A stretch of DNA of 41,302 nt from NCBI GenBank assembly GCA_017651315.1, contig JAGCDE010000011.1:1-41302 (forward strand), read 5' to 3'. Below, one piece after another: positions 36,145 to 40,789 of the stretch (position 1 is its first letter; every line of letters begins with the position of its first letter). Position numbers and translations under genes: made by a program. The notes under the pieces are model-generated. The model was not told the origin of the DNA. It did not search any database and saw nothing but the letters and a program-made list of their open reading frames with translations. Source of the DNA: Bacteroidaceae bacterium. Lineage in GTDB: Bacteria > Bacteroidota > Bacteroidia > Bacteroidales > Bacteroidaceae.

Positions 36145-36501
36145 TTAAAACGCCAGCTGACTACAGTAATTGCAAAAATCCTCAACAGTATCAAAACTTT
36201 CAGCATCAGCAATCTTTTCCTGGCTTGGCTTACCGTTCTGAGTCTGCTTAACAACTTCAAGCATCTTTACAAGGTCATCGGGCATGTTCTCAAACTTAAT
36301 ATCAACGCCGGCAACAGGTTTCTTGATAAACACATTATAGAATTCATCAACAAAACTGCGCGTAGCAAATTCAACCTTGCTAAAGTCAAGCACAACCTTC
36401 TTCTCGCCGCTATTCTGAATCAACAGCAGCAAGTCATGAACCGTTGACCTTGATCTTAGATCAACCGCAATAACATTAGTTATGTCAATCGTGCGTATCA
36501 T
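36145..36501 (-). CDS. STAS-like domain protein (DUF4325 type)
   Basis: The 118-residue protein matches the STAS-like DUF4325 family: a beta-strand start (IRTIDITNVIAVDLRSR), then KKVVLDFSKVEFATRSFVDEFYN and a C-terminal helix. STAS domains usually serve as small regulatory switches, for example anti-anti-sigma factors that are phosphorylated by a HATPase partner. The segment following DFSKVEFATRSF has Thr/Ser at the place where a phosphorylated residue would be. It lies 25 bases after a STAS-HATPase gene in the same operon, so the two probably interact. No function is established. Confidence 0.75.
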   Translation of the reverse strand: MIRTIDITNVIAVDLRSRSTVHDLLLLIQNSGEKKVVLDFSKVEFATRSFVDEFYNVFIKKPVAGVDIKFENMPDDLVKMLEVVKQTQNGKPSQEKIADAESFDTVEDFCNYCSQLAF

Positions 36502-36526
36502 AACATCGGCAAATATAATAATTTTA

Positions 36527-37411
36527 TTACTCCCAATACCTATTCATTACAAAATTAGGATTATGGTACGGTATTCTCAATGCAACAACCGTGCCATTCA
36601 GTCTAACATACTCCGGGAAAGCAACAAGCCGATATCCGTTTCTGTTTTTAACATAAACGGCATTACCGGAAACCATCAAAAAACTGCCGCCCAGTCCTTC
36701 AATCAATGCTTTCTTAGAAGTATAGATTCCATATCCCCTATTCTCTGCATCAGGCAGATTTTTAGCAGAAATCTTCATGTTAGCAGCTTTCATAGCTTCC
36801 ACATCCGAGTCTATCTCATTGTACTTCTCTGAACGTTTATAACTACCCAACAATGATATTCCATTGTCCGATATGCACAAATCCAAGTAACCCTTATTGG
36901 AATACGCTTGTGCCAAAACAAAAGCACGTTTGGATTCAGAATGCTCAGTAATGTTGTCAACCAACTCTGAGATAAAGTACTTCAAGCCTTCACTAACATT
37001 CTTCTCAATATGTAACTGGCGGATTATAATATTCTCAACTGTTGTCAGGACCGAGTTCTTTACATCCTCATCAACAACGGTAACTGGAAAATCAATAATA
37101 GGTATGTATCTCTTTCGGGAGAATCTCTCCATCACCGCAACAAACTCACTACTTCTGATCCGGTCCGGCTGTAATCCTTCAGAGAAACAAATCACATTCA
37201 AATAATCCGGAAGATTAACTAATGAAACCTCCTTATCTAATTCCCTTAAAGTAACTAGTAAAACCGATATGAATAACGGCGATACGAATTTTGCTCCCTG
37301 AAAATCCAGTACAATAACATTTTCACCAGACTGGCGTATTTGGGACACAACAACCAAAGCCTTACTTAGGCCATCCAACAAATCATCGTTTACATTAACT
37401 GCTATATGCAT
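36527..37411 (-). CDS. STAS-like domain fused to a HATPase (GHKL) domain
   Basis: The 294-residue protein has an N-terminal STAS-like half (residues 1-80: NVIVLDFQGAKFVSPLFISVLL, the same DFxGxxFVS pattern as the next gene). The C-terminal GHKL ATP-binding half has the N box FISELVDNITEHS (Glu149-Asn153), the G1 box CISDNGISL (180-187) and the G2 box NRGYGIYTSKKAL (224-236). There is no phospho-acceptor His domain, so it resembles anti-sigma/serine-kinase type HATPases rather than sensor kinases. No sigma factor is nearby. The G+C content is lower than that of the core genes. A good promoter is at 37440-37469. Confidence 0.75.
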   Translation of the reverse strand: MHIAVNVNDDLLDGLSKALVVVSQIRQSGENVIVLDFQGAKFVSPLFISVLLVTLRELDKEVSLVNLPDYLNVICFSEGLQPDRIRSSEFVAVMERFSRKRYIPIIDFPVTVVDEDVKNSVLTTVENIIIRQLHIEKNVSEGLKYFISELVDNITEHSESKRAFVLAQAYSNKGYLDLCISDNGISLLGSYKRSEKYNEIDSDVEAMKAANMKISAKNLPDAENRGYGIYTSKKALIEGLGGSFLMVSGNAVYVKNRNGYRLVAFPEYVRLNGTVVALRIPYHNPNFVMNRYWE

Positions 37412-37510: not shown

Positions 37511-38340
37511 CTACATAATCACCATCTTCTCCCCACCCAAAGCATCCGCAAGAATAGCCCGGACAAACCGCCACGCATCAACAGAATAAGTTTGCTCATT
37601 CTTTGTATATTCACGCTCAAACTTGATCTCATCTATCTTCATAAGCCCCCAATATTCATTTTTGACATATGCGTCCTCAAAACAATAAATACTGGTGTTA
37701 TCGTCCGGGCGCTTATCAGGAGCATGTTTCTTAAGTTCCTCTATTGACAACAAAACACGGCCATCTGCATCTCTGATATTATCATCAACGGTACTCAATG
37801 GCAGATGGGTAGCATTTCTCCACTTTTCACTGTTCTGCACGCTATACATAGCAGTTCTCTCCCGATACATATTAATATCAAAGCCCCGCTTGGCAGCCCA
37901 CTCTTCATTTATGAGAAAGAGACAATGAGTAACGTCAATTTGAAACTGCATATTTAGCTCTCCAATAATAGTCTCACCATCCCTGGGTGCCCTCAGTTCC
38001 TTAAGAGAGATTCCATAGAAATCAGCAAACTGTTGAGCCCCTTTCTGATAACCAACCGTAGTCACCATAATGCCTTTCACATTTCCCAGGTCCGATATCA
38101 CTCCATAGAAGTCGCGCACCTTACCGATAGAAACACCGTAACTGTAGTTCTTACATTCTATTGCTACCCGATGCACTATCCCATCCTTGTTGTACTCCCA
38201 GTAAAATCAATCTGGTGATTCAGGCCTGACTTACCCCTCAGTTTTACGTTATGCACAGATGATGACTCAAGTCCTTTGTATAACGCCAATCGCTCACACA
38301 ACTCACGTGTGAACTTCTCATACTCTGTATTGGTATTCAT
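37511..38340 (-). pseudogene. Mrr-like restriction endonuclease gene, split by a frameshift
   Basis: The reading frame starts at 38340 (MNTNTEYEKFTRELCERLA) and continues to GLNHQIDF. It then shifts at a run of four T (minus strand, 38203-38206). In the other frame the protein continues YWEYNKDGIVHRVAIECKNY and IGKVRDFYGVISDLGN, to the stop at 37511. This is an Mrr_cat/PD-(D/E)XK core whose catalytic Asp (Asp45) lies just before the break and whose ECK lies just after it. One extra T would restore a protein of about 276 residues. It could be a true pseudogene, a phase-variable tract or a sequencing error. The C-terminal 150 residues have no recognised domain. Confidence 0.75.
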
Positions 38341-38350
38341 GATGCCGATT

Positions 38351-38515
38351 CTATCTCTCCAAAGCCCCCTCATCCATCAGGAACTCCTCAAGGCTCATAA
38401 TCAGGATGCCGTTCTCGTCATTGTGCCTCATAACGTTGTCTCTGGTTACTATCACTTTACGGAAGCCATCGCCCACACTCACCAACGGCCGCTCTTCCGG
38501 AATATCTGGAATATA
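38351..38515 (-). pseudogene. Remnant of an AAA_14/DUF4143-type ATPase C-terminus
   Basis: A 54-codon stretch without a start, preceded by an in-frame TAA, reads YIPDIPEERPLVSVGDGFRK and then VIVTRDNV...MSLEEFLMDEGALER and a stop. The GD-FRK-VIVTRD...GI..MSLEEFL pattern is the end of large AAA ATPases with DUF4143. Only this tail survives, 10 bases before the Mrr-like gene. The 64 bases between it and the SecB-like gene contain nothing I recognise. Confidence 0.5.
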
Positions 38516-38579: not shown

Positions 38580-39014
38580 TTAGGATACTTTAATCTCCAG
38601 TTTATCCTTTAAAGTAGCAACAAGATTAATTGGCGGTAGTACTATACTTGCTAATACGGATTGATTGAGTTCGCATCTGGCATGTATTTCGCCTCTGGCT
38701 GCTCCTACATTGATTGTGGCCAAATATTGCATAAATTCGGGCTCAAGAGTAAATACACCGTCCTTAATCATGCCTTCAAATGCCTGTTGTTCCACTTCAA
38801 ATGATGTTATTACATCTAACTTAATCAAGGCATTCTGTCCGCTCAAATAAGTATATGTACCTGTTATCCGCACTCTTTTTAACGGGAAACTCACACCAAA
38901 CATAAACTGCGTATTAACGTCTATGTTTTGACCTTCTGTCAATGTTGCTGACTTTTCAAGATTGAAATTCTGAGTCAGCAACTCTACTATTCTAAATGGT
39001 ATCGGATTACTCAT
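38580..39014 (-). CDS. SecB-like small protein (possible chaperone of a toxin-antitoxin operon)
   Basis: The 144-residue protein fits the SecB fold in length and strand order. A strand-rich middle (QFMFGVSFPLKRVRITGTYT, LDVITSFEVEQQAFEG) is followed by GVFTLEP. Then comes AARGEIHARCELNQSVLASI with VLPPINL, which lines up with the YARECI...LAPVNF end of E. coli SecB. Stand-alone SecB-like proteins of this kind act as chaperones of antitoxins in toxin-antitoxin-chaperone systems. It is the last gene of an overlapped operon, and its ATG shares one base with the preceding stop (TAATG). The SecB assignment comes from pattern, not from a search. Confidence 0.55.
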   Translation of the reverse strand: MSNPIPFRIVELLTQNFNLEKSATLTEGQNIDVNTQFMFGVSFPLKRVRITGTYTYLSGQNALIKLDVITSFEVEQQAFEGMIKDGVFTLEPEFMQYLATINVGAARGEIHARCELNQSVLASIVLPPINLVATLKDKLEIKVS

Positions 39015-39436
39015 TATGCTGCTTTTTCAACGATTGATTCACTCTGGGAATAAGTATATTCATACTCTTGTGGAGTATTAAATAACTTCCTGGTCATTAT
39101 ATATTGCTCCTCAATAATATCAACAAGGTTACTAACAGTTACATATAAATTCGGTGTAGCAGCCTTTATTATTTCAACATCTTCAGTAAAAGTAAAGTTC
39201 CTTTCTTCATCACAGAACAATGGAGCATTACTACCGTATTTTGCATTGAGTTCATCCTCAAACTTCATTGCATCAACGTTAAACTCATTACAATCATCTA
39301 TCTTGCTGGATGGTGAGAATGATACCAGGTACACTCCATACTTTTTGCTCAACTCATACTTTATGGTCAACCAATTGAACTTTTCAACCATCTCTTTGCA
39401 CCAAGGCAAAAGTATTTTTTCAATTTCTTTATTCAT
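39014..39436 (-). CDS. Hypothetical protein, possible antitoxin of the HEPN/SecB-like operon
   Basis: I do not recognise a domain in these 140 residues. It has a central acidic segment (NAKYGSNAPLFCDEERNFTF) and an aromatic C-terminal tail (LFNTPQEYEYTYSQSESIV). In toxin-antitoxin-chaperone systems the antitoxin is the middle gene and has a C-terminal chaperone-addiction tail. The position and this tail are consistent with that, but it is inference. It overlaps the HEPN-like gene by 4 bases (ATGA) and the SecB-like gene by 1. G+C is low, about 35-40%. Confidence 0.55.
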   Translation of the reverse strand: MNKEIEKILLPWCKEMVEKFNWLTIKYELSKKYGVYLVSFSPSSKIDDCNEFNVDAMKFEDELNAKYGSNAPLFCDEERNFTFTEDVEIIKAATPNLYVTVSNLVDIIEEQYIMTRKLFNTPQEYEYTYSQSESIVEKAA

Positions 39437-39870
39437 ACCGCAATACGTGTATACCTCTTTATATCGTTGATTAATCCTTCGGCCTGTGCTCTACATTCCA
39501 AACTTTCTTCCTGAGAAAATATCATCTCTCCGTAATCTGCCAGAACTCGTTTTTGTTTTAGACTCCTTATATCCTGCTTAAAAACCCTCACGTTTTTATC
39601 ACTAGTAATCATCCTGTTGGCTAGTTCATTGATAATATAATCATGAGAACCACCTTCTTGGCTGGTCTTTGCACGTTCTTCTTGTTCTGTATATGAAATA
39701 GCATGATCAACGTGAGCTAGTCTATGTTTCATAAACAACAAAACGGCATAGTAAAAACAATGGATACTTGAAGTATATGGACCGTTCTCAGATGGAGAAC
39801 TTAATACCACACCTGCAGACATGTTTTCTAGGTATTTTCTTTCTATGTTATCCATAACATATTCGCTCAT
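39433..39870 (-). CDS. HEPN-like domain protein, possible toxin
   Basis: The 145-residue all-helical protein has the look of a HEPN domain. A first helix contains SSIHCFYYAVLLFMKHRLAHVDH, written here in two overlapping parts of the family pattern (SIHCFYYAV and LLFMKHRL). A middle region holds SHDYIINELANRM. A last helix hairpin, QKRVLADYGEMIFSQEESLE, has the (R)xxADY pattern common in HEPN proteins. The canonical RNase motif Rx4-6H near the last helix is not evident. An RLAHVDH run in the first helix fits the spacing but is in an atypical place. It is the second gene of the four-ORF operon and overlaps the small ORF before it by 4 bases. Confidence 0.55.
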   Translation of the reverse strand: MSEYVMDNIERKYLENMSAGVVLSSPSENGPYTSSIHCFYYAVLLFMKHRLAHVDHAISYTEQEERAKTSQEGGSHDYIINELANRMITSDKNVRVFKQDIRSLKQKRVLADYGEMIFSQEESLECRAQAEGLINDIKRYTRIAV

Positions 39871-39983
39871 AGGATTGCAAATGTAGTTTTAATTACTCTT
39901 CCTATTGTTTTGTTTTGCAGGCTTTTTACTTCGTCTTTAAGAAGTTTTAACGAAGAATGAATTTTAGTTGGTATTTTCATCAT
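39867..39983 (-). CDS. Small ORF (38 aa) heading the HEPN/SecB-like operon
   Basis: MMKIPTKIHSSLKLLKDEVK and SLQNKTIGRVIKTTFAIL make up a 38-residue basic peptide whose TGA overlaps the ATG of the HEPN-like gene (ATGA). It could be a small regulatory protein, or the tail of a longer gene cut off by the IS66 remnant. The frame stays open upstream into the transposase remnant (antisense), so a truncation is possible. I see no clear promoter box in front of it. Confidence 0.4.
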   Translation of the reverse strand: MMKIPTKIHSSLKLLKDEVKSLQNKTIGRVIKTTFAIL

Positions 39984-40041: not shown

Positions 40042-40789
40042 AGCAAAAGAACCGTGTATGACCTGCTGCGGCAGAAGATACTCTCCAGCGAGTACATCCA
40101 GGTTGACGAAAGTGTGATACCGGTGCTTGACGATGAGAAACACAAGGCAAAGAAAGGATACGAATGGTGTGTCAGGGACGGTCTGACAGGCGATGTCATG
40201 TTCTATTATGACCGTGGCAGCCGTGCCGGACGTGTCGCACGCGAACTGCTGGGCAGTTATCACGGCTTTGCCCAGACTGACGGATATGAAGTCTATGACG
40301 AATTTGAACAGCGTGAAGGCATCACGATGTGCGGATGCTGGGCGCATGCCAGGCGCAAGTTCGTTGACGCGTTGGACGAGAACAAGACACTGGCATCGGA
40401 AGGACTTTACTACATATCCCAGCTGTATGCCGTTGAGAGCAAAGCCGACGATGAAGACCTGACACCGGAAAAGCGTACGGAGCTAAGGAAGGAGAAGTCA
40501 TACCCTATAATACTGACTTTTGAGAAATGGATGCAGACACGCTTCTCTCAAGTGTCGCCGCAGAGCCGCATGGGCAGGGCCATCGCCTACACGTATGCGC
40601 TTCTTCCCAGACTGTCCCGCTACGTGAATGACGGCAGAATCAGCATAGACAACAACCGTATAGAAAACGCAATAAGACCGCTTGCTCTGGGCCGGAAGAA
40701 CTATTTGTTCTGCGGTAATGCTGCCACATAAATGGATAAGCAGACACCCCGAGGCAATCCTGAAAAAAGAGAAACAGGATAAGCAATAA
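40042..40789 (+). pseudogene. IS66-family transposase remnant
   Basis: The frame from about 40042 (KRTVYDLLRQ) encodes the IS66 DDE core: SSEYIQVDESVIPVLDDEKH, HKAKKGYEWCVRD, FAQTDGYEVYDEF, CGCWAHARRKFVDAL and the C-terminal RISIDNNRIENAIRPLALGRKNYLFCGN. After FCGN the frame breaks. The normal IS66 tail (LPHKWISRHPEAIL, ending KQDKQ) resumes in the next frame from about 40721 to 40789, so some tens of codons have been deleted. The N-terminal half (helix-turn-helix, zinc finger) and the companion TnpA/TnpB genes are missing. The element is dead. Confidence 0.85.

What the first reader, a model, noticed from the sequence alone, without database searches (positions are those of the whole stretch)
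38580..39983. Four overlapping ORFs with a HEPN-like protein and a SecB-like protein: a candidate toxin-antitoxin-chaperone system
The sequence shows four ORFs (38, 145, 140 and 144 aa) joined by ATGA, ATGA and TAATG overlaps, at low G+C, between an IS66 remnant and broken defence genes. The second has HEPN-like features and the last has a SecB-like strand pattern. Known toxin-antitoxin-chaperone systems (HigBA-SecB in mycobacteria, CmdTAC in E. coli) have the order toxin, antitoxin, SecB-like chaperone. Here the order would be HEPN-like toxin, unknown antitoxin with an aromatic C-terminal tail, SecB-like chaperone. I know of no described TAC with this HEPN-like protein and a leading 38-aa ORF.
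Basis: partly seen in the sequence, partly recalled or inferred. Interest (0 to 1): 0.8.

Follow-up and report, generated by a model that had tools for sequence, protein, structure and literature searches.

The report
HEPN toxin-antitoxin-chaperone operon of Bacteroidota
Three overlapping genes encode what looks like a bacterial self-poisoning switch: an RNA-cutting type of toxin, an antidote that ends in the cell's own 'destroy me' tag or a shortened form of it, and a dedicated helper protein that keeps the antidote alive, probably so that a virus infection sets the toxin free.

Summary
Three minus-strand genes, T (39433-39870), A (39014-39436) and C (38580-39014), form a conserved operon. 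T is a HEPN-T protein with the alternative R..DY plus upstream His site. A has a folded N-domain and a disordered tail ending -AA. C is predicted to have a SecB fold. Relatives occur across the window's order and in viral contigs. Pfam SecB and PADLOC's CmdC models each match 17 of 21 C relatives; the window's own C is not matched and rests on AlphaFold2/Foldseek. Of 22 antitoxins 21 end -AA, against 1 of 20 T and 0 of 21 C. Many end NYALAA; two end in exactly the nine-residue tmRNA tag of their own genome. This is the anatomy of a toxin-antitoxin-chaperone (TAC) system, in which the chaperone protects a ClpXP-degradable antitoxin. The fourth, 38-aa ORF is not a gene but promoter DNA. T and A are unlike the HigBA, HicAB, MqsRA and CmdTA pairs described for TACs; my searches found no HEPN TAC in the held open-access papers. 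Toxicity, degradation and phage defence are inferred, not shown. Verdict: new variant of a known kind.

The parts
39433..39870 (-). T: HEPN-T (PF05168-like) toxin candidate, 145 aa; invariant Y40 Y41 H76 R108 D112 Y113
39014..39436 (-). A: antitoxin candidate, 140 aa; folded N-domain (about residues 1-95) and disordered tail
39014..39151 (-). A tail (about residues 96-140): candidate chaperone-addiction region ending ...SIVEKAA, a ClpXP-type -AA end
   Evidence: ClpXP reading of such ends in TAC antitoxins from PMC11618068 passages
38580..39014 (-). C: SecB-fold chaperone candidate, 144 aa
   Evidence: AlphaFold2 pLDDT 92.8; Foldseek top matches Rv1957 and SecB; PADLOC PDC-M64C 9.1e-4
39878..39885 (-). 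TACATTTG, Bacteroidota-type -7 promoter element 15 nt before the T start codon (consensus recalled)
   Evidence: TAnnTTTG within 100 nt upstream of T in 14 of the 18 loci examined; mononucleotide shuffles mean 1.4, max 6 of 18
39867..39983 (-).
40054..40731 (+). IS66 transposase fragment (C-terminal part), context only
37511..38373 (-). Mrr-type restriction nuclease gene split over two frames, context only

Best explanation
A tripartite toxin-antitoxin-chaperone (TAC) operon with a HEPN-T toxin. Under normal growth A binds and neutralises T. A's disordered tail is unstable and ends in an ssrA-like ClpXP degron; the dedicated SecB-fold chaperone C binds this tail and shields it. When C is drawn off, most plausibly by a newly made phage protein as T4 capsid does in CmdTAC, ClpXP destroys A. 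Free T, a HEPN ribonuclease using invariant R108, D112 and H76, then stops translation and aborts the infection. Shown here: operon conservation, families, predicted folds of A and C, disordered tail, -AA/ssrA-like ends, some phage-borne copies. Inferred: toxicity, neutralisation, chaperone binding, ClpXP degradation, trigger, defence.
For: Same T-A-C order in relatives. With the window group left out of the profile, the window's T and A are still found (E 1.4e-25 and 5.9e-8, search space 1000). HEPN matches 17 of 20 T; solved HEPN at 2.5e-8. Pfam SecB 17 of 21 C at E<=1, best 8.1e-16; PADLOC PD-T4-9_C (CmdC) 17 of 21 at E<=0.1, best 2.3e-32. Window C: pLDDT 92.8; Foldseek ranks 1-11 are all SecB or Rv1957, prob 0.99-1.00. 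A: N-domain confident, residues 102-127 pLDDT<50. -AA ends: A 21 of 22, T 1 of 20, C 0 of 21. A ends average 4.28 identities of 9 to tmRNA tags, T 0.49, C 0.33. Some copies lie beside terminase or other phage genes. CmdTAC mechanism and its LAA end: PMC11618068 passages.
Against: The window's own C is not linked to SecB by sequence: no Pfam hit, E 0.46 to a profile of the SecB-type rows, and only 18-20 columns aligned by hhalign at E 4.8e-4 to 1.5e-3, probability 17-32%. Its AlphaFold2 run used an alignment that included SecB-type rows, and Foldseek TM-scores are modest (0.42-0.59). The window's tail (EKAA) is far from NYALAA. T lacks the canonical Rx4-6H motif and is below Pfam's cut-off. No full tmRNA was found in the window's genome to compare. 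The window's copy sits between an IS fragment and a broken gene and may be a remnant; its neighbours were not scanned against PHROGs, and those scanned with Pfam are not phage genes.
Confidence: 0.85

Rival explanations
1. A HEPN/MNT-type two-component system (such as PDC-M05) with an unrelated downstream gene: T is neutralised by nucleotidylation and C has another role.
For: T matches PDC-M05B at 5.1e-5. Of 13 weak T-profile loci elsewhere, 11 have a 104-113-aa ORF directly before the HEPN gene, which I read as MNT without testing it.
Against: The only ORF that runs up to T here is the 110-aa frame antisense to IS66. A matches no nucleotidyltransferase family (22 A proteins, Pfam at E<=1). 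A has a disordered tail and an -AA end, and C stays beside A in all 22 loci (split in L001).
Confidence: 0.05
2. T is a catalytically dead HEPN protein; the operon acts through binding (for example RNA binding or translation block), still held by A and C.
For: The canonical Rx4-6H motif is absent; the invariant site is R108-x3-D112-Y113. The HEPN survey discusses non-catalytic HEPN proteins (PMC3710099 passages).
Against: The same survey describes HEPN-T members in which D replaces H and a conserved upstream H could serve as an alternative site; T has such an H (H76), invariant in 20 of 20 rows.
Confidence: 0.2
3. A decayed, non-functional remnant stranded by IS66 insertion.
For: IS66 fragment directly upstream and broken Mrr gene downstream; low GC; the L001 relative has an interrupted C frame.
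Against: All three frames are intact with the promoter element in place, and the comparison with L001 shows purifying selection.
Confidence: 0.1

Closest known systems
CmdTAC (PD-T4-9, E. coli)
   Same: T-A-C gene order, SecB-like chaperone (PADLOC PD-T4-9_C models hit 17 of 21 C proteins), antitoxin with unstructured C-terminus ending (L)AA, very variable antitoxin
   Different: CmdT is an ADP-ribosyltransferase, T here is HEPN; the A N-domain matches no known family in the searches made; the window's C is not detected by the CmdC models
HigBA1-SecB-TA (Rv1955-1957) and other HigBA/HicAB/MqsRA TACs
   Same: chaperone-addiction layout (PMC5105189 passages); Rv1957 (5mtw) is the top Foldseek match of C
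   Different: toxin and antitoxin families differ; A has no significant match to a known family
HEPN/MNT (PDC-M05, HepT-MntA)
   Same: T belongs to the broad HEPN-T/PF05168 group
   Different: no MNT partner; chaperone present; gene order differs
Two-gene HEPN + ~95-aa pairs in other lineages of the phylum
   Same: HEPN related at hhalign E 1e-15; partner directly after a HEPN ORF in 25 of 33
   Different: no chaperone, no long tail; homology of the partner to A not established (E 0.0034 to 0.09, probability under 10%)
PADLOC candidate PDC-M64
   Same: C matches PDC-M64C at 9.1e-4; one of 22 A matches PDC-M64B at 0.022
   Different: T matches no PDC-M64 model; no paper in the library names PDC-M64

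Membership tests
TAC (toxin-antitoxin-chaperone) | three-gene operon in the order toxin, antitoxin, chaperone | tested here: met
   (order and overlaps; transcription not tested)
TAC (toxin-antitoxin-chaperone) | third gene is a SecB-like chaperone | tested here: met
   by sequence in 17 of 21 C proteins; for the window's own C only by predicted fold, not by sequence
TAC (toxin-antitoxin-chaperone) | antitoxin with a variable, unstructured C-terminal extension (ChAD) | tested here: met
   (tail dN 0.86, N-domain 0.20 between window and L001; dS saturated); chaperone binding not tested
TAC (toxin-antitoxin-chaperone) | antitoxin ends in a ClpXP recognition sequence | tested here: met
   -AA in 21 of 22; degradation itself not tested
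TAC (toxin-antitoxin-chaperone) | toxin neutralised only when antitoxin and chaperone are both present | not testable with these tools
   needs expression assay
HEPN-T (PF05168) | HEPN family profile | tested here: met
   17 of 20 T at E<=0.1; the window's T itself is below the curated cut-off, 19.4 of 22 bits
HEPN-T (PF05168) | canonical Rx4-6H motif | tested here: not met
   R108-x3-D112-Y113 with upstream H76 instead, as described for the AF0298-type HEPN-T (PMC3710099 passages)
CmdTAC | ADP-ribosyltransferase toxin | tested here: not met
   T is HEPN
HEPN/MNT (PDC-M05) | MNT nucleotidyltransferase partner | tested here: not met
   only an IS66-antisense frame runs up to T; A matches no such family
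PDC-M64 (PADLOC candidate) | matches to its A, B and C models | tested here: inconclusive
   C weak, B one weak hit in 22, A none

The most novel reading that the evidence does not exclude
An undescribed TAC class of Bacteroidota, partly phage-borne, in which a HEPN-T toxin is held by a new antitoxin family whose tail is a gene-encoded copy of the host's own tmRNA (ssrA) tag, in two genomes identical over all nine residues. The switch would then read competition between the SecB-fold chaperone and ClpXP for a tmRNA-tag look-alike, so that phage proteins or overload of the tag-degradation pathway would set or delay the toxin.
Probability: 0.4. Interest if true: 0.78.

Novelty: new variant of a known kind. 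Interest (0 to 1): 0.64.

Why it matters
TACs are a young class of phage-sensing switches, described in the passages I read with HigBA, HicAB, MqsRA and CmdTA pairs. A HEPN-toxin TAC with its own antitoxin family, spread over an order and carried by some phages, would show that the SecB-chaperone/degron control module is combined with quite different toxins. The near-exact copies of the host tmRNA tag give a direct test of how the antitoxin is destroyed, and may hint at how such systems are tuned to a host.

Tried and rejected
Rejected: the 38-aa ORF as a component. MNT/HEPN reading. Host-specific matching of tail and tag: own pairing is not clearly better than shuffled pairing (443 of 5000 shuffles reach it); most tags end YALAA. 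Homology of A to the two-gene HEPN partner: not established. Fold of A: no Foldseek match at E<=1e-3; 7ae9 and 7ae2 chains from HEPN/MNT complexes at E 0.4 only. Plasmid and phage record searches with T and C at E<=0.01: no match. Viral-contig scans: window C, L003 T, L008 C and L006 A found nothing; L019 C gave five loci.

Dropped or unread rows: A6 (20 T) leaves out the partial or interrupted T of L023, L025, L029 and L042, and includes both HEPN proteins of L007 and L027's T; A4 (21 C) leaves out the split C of L001. The promoter count covers 18 loci and leaves out L023, L025, L029 and L042. In one search the loci L104, L105, L108, L109 (repeats) were skipped; they were read. In one search, 17 of 22 antitoxin loci were paired with a tag (none for the window, L001, L018, L021, L028); ten-residue tags were cut to their last nine, and L025 was paired with the tag of the genome's other tmRNA. 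Only loci that looked phage-like by eye (L009, L010, L014) were scanned against PHROGs; L001, L011, L012 and L013 were not.

Full report
OBSERVATION. T/A and s38/T overlap by four bases (ATGA), and A/C share one base (TAATG). The operon has 35.3% GC in a 50.0% GC window. Upstream is an IS66 transposase fragment on the plus strand (40054-40731), and downstream an Mrr-type nuclease gene split over two frames (37511-38373).

THREE GENES, NOT FOUR. L001, a contig titled uncultured Bacteroidales bacterium RUG14751, carries the same operon (T 62% identical over its best segment; its C frame is split). The DNA upstream of T is 82% identical there, but the 38-aa frame has an in-frame stop and no ATG; no other locus held at that point gave a tblastn hit below E 0.04. 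A TACATTTG element lies 15 nt before T. TAnnTTTG (the Bacteroidota -7 consensus, recalled) occurs within 100 nt of the T start in 14 of 18 loci examined, against a mean of 1.4 and a maximum of 6 of 18 in 1000 mononucleotide shuffles. So the 38-aa frame is promoter DNA. T, A and C evolve as genes against L001: dN/dS about 0.16, 0.15 and 0.11 (C: 79 codons of the 3' part) with saturated dS, and 65 of 124, 71 of 138 and 41 of 63 differences at third positions.

DISTRIBUTION. With T alone, 7 of 301 sampled genomes of the family match at E<=1e-3, the window's own included. With a T profile, 32 of 393 sampled genomes of the order match at E<=1e-3. Of the 16 strong hits (E<=4e-20), 15 show A and C beside T and the other (L027) ends at a contig edge; of 13 weak loci, 11 have a 104-113-aa ORF directly before the HEPN gene, read as MNT pairs. 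L042, a short T fragment, is followed by A and C. In a phylum sample 7 of 395 match at E<=1e-8; besides the window and G032, one (L082, same class) is a T-A-C operon with a tail ending QSAA, and the rest that I read are HEPN genes without C. Of five viral contigs with a C relative, two carry the whole operon (L076, L077), one carries A-C at its end (L078), and in two (L075, L079) no A or T was seen beside C. No match in 72,556 plasmid and 50,697 phage records with T or C at E<=0.01.

T. Pfam HEPN matches 17 of 20 T proteins at E<=0.1, best 1.9e-9. The window's T scores 19.4 bits, under the cut-off of 22. The family profile finds two solved 'HEPN domain-containing' chains at 2.5e-8 and 3.7e-7. 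Invariant in 20 of 20 rows: Y40, Y41, H76, R108, D112, Y113. There is no Rx4-6H motif. The HEPN survey (PMC3710099, passages read) says that in HEPN-T (PF05168) D replaces H in several cases, and that such proteins have a conserved H elsewhere that could contribute to activity, which is what T shows. T itself was not folded.

A. No significant match to any family, solved chain or fold. A profile of 17 other A N-domains finds the window's A at 5.9e-8 with the window group left out (search space 1000). AlphaFold2 folds about residues 1-95 well and leaves the tail disordered (mean pLDDT 78.8; residues 102-127 under 50). Of 22 A proteins 21 end -AA; the exception, L024, ends NLALTV. T ends so in 1 of 20 and C in 0 of 21. 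Among 332 mechanically called ORFs of 120 aa or more in the window and the loci then held (repeat loci counted again), the 31 that end -AA are A proteins or the second HEPN of L007. Five further A ends, L076, L077, L078, L082 and L102, also end -AA.

TMRNA TAGS. 14 of 22 A ends fit [YF][ASY][LI]AA and 7 end YALAA. ARAGORN read tags in 19 of 20 loci given to it (the gene in L066 and L025 is the same one). G032 and G489 have the tag GENNYALAA, and their antitoxins end in exactly these nine residues. Against 17 tags, A ends average 4.28 identities of 9, T ends 0.49 and C ends 0.33; over the 17 own pairs 78 of 153 positions agree. Matching to the own host's tag rather than to the common tag is not significant (443 of 5000 shuffles). 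The window's own genome (83% complete) showed no match over the tmRNA cut-off, and its tail ends EKAA only.

C. Pfam SecB (at E<=1, best 8.1e-16) and PADLOC PD-T4-9_C, the CmdC models (at E<=0.1, best 2.3e-32), each match 17 of 21 C proteins. A profile of all 21 finds solved SecB at 4.6e-6. The window's C is not among these matches: it gives PDC-M64C at 9.1e-4 only, and against a profile of 17 SecB-type rows it scores E 0.46. AlphaFold2 gives pLDDT 92.8 with four strands and a long helix. Foldseek's first eleven matches are SecB or Rv1957 (best E 2.6e-4, five at E<=1e-3, TM 0.42-0.59). The alignment used held SecB-type rows, so this is good but not independent evidence.

CENSUS. A C profile finds 58 places in 51 of 393 sampled genomes of the order. 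A script read all 58 (loci): 16 have the HEPN T upstream (one, L095, as a 54-aa fragment) and one more (L102) has A at a contig end; 15 have a toxin like seven seeds that I picked by eye as ADP-ribosyltransferase-like (Pfam gave no match for the two tested); 26 were not classified. So HEPN TACs are about as common as these in the sample.

PHAGE LINK. L009 has a terminase gene beside the operon (4.2e-8), L010 a tape-measure-like protein (1.6e-5) and L014 a portal-like protein (8.9e-4) (these three loci were chosen because they looked phage-like, four of their eight proteins scanned had a match). L076 has both terminase subunits just downstream. The window's neighbours were not scanned against PHROGs; those scanned with Pfam are not phage genes.

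MECHANISM. [quoted passage not shown] CmdC protects it; T4 capsid protein outcompetes it for CmdC; ClpP degrades CmdA; CmdT acts. Bordes 2016 (PMC5105189, passages): TAC antitoxins carry a variable C-terminal chaperone-addiction extension; TA pairs generally belong to HigBA, HicAB or MqsRA. The window's operon has each structural counterpart. Toxicity, C-dependence, ClpXP loss, trigger and defence are inferred.

NOVELTY. Ten full-text searches of the held open-access library were made; four of them paired HEPN with SecB or chaperone terms and listed 10 different papers. I looked at passages, not whole texts, of all ten (PMC10440598 among them): none describes a HEPN-toxin TAC; in PMC8165232 12 of 19 places were shown. 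The other searches' papers were mostly seen as listings. Preprints and most subscription papers are not held, so absence from print is not shown. PADLOC's PDC-M64, which no held paper names, may be related. I class it as a new variant of a known kind: TAC layout and chaperone known, toxin family new to TACs in what I could read, antitoxin family without a match.

Noticed in passing
L025/L066 (G456:C530) 402-786: A second tmRNA gene (tag GNFNSIVLAA) lies about 70 nt upstream of a HEPN toxin whose antitoxin ends SIILAA; the same genome has another tmRNA with GENNYALAA. An element-borne tmRNA resembling its own antitoxin's end, or a contaminant contig.
   Followed up: partly
L008: C is 43% identical to the window's C while T and A are only 20-24% identical: the chaperone gene may have been exchanged.
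   Followed up: no
L007 (G066:C96): Four-gene layout HEPN-A-C-HEPN; the second HEPN protein itself ends -AA.
   Followed up: no
G968, G960, G1085, G1134 and others (L083, L085-L089, L148-L177): A HEPN gene followed by a ~95-aa partner without chaperone, up to 11 partner matches per genome, in other lineages of the phylum; possibly a chaperone-free relative.
   Followed up: partly
L106, L113, L116, L118-L120: TAC-like operons with an ADP-ribosyltransferase-like toxin (label by eye) and upstream ORFs also ending -AA, e.g. SENNYALAA in L106.
   Followed up: partly
window 36145-37411: A STAS-like/DUF4325 ORF next to a HATPase ORF that matches DrmA at 3.5e-8.
   Followed up: no
L001 1361-1787: The C gene is split into two ORFs in this contig (sequencing error or real break).
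   Followed up: no
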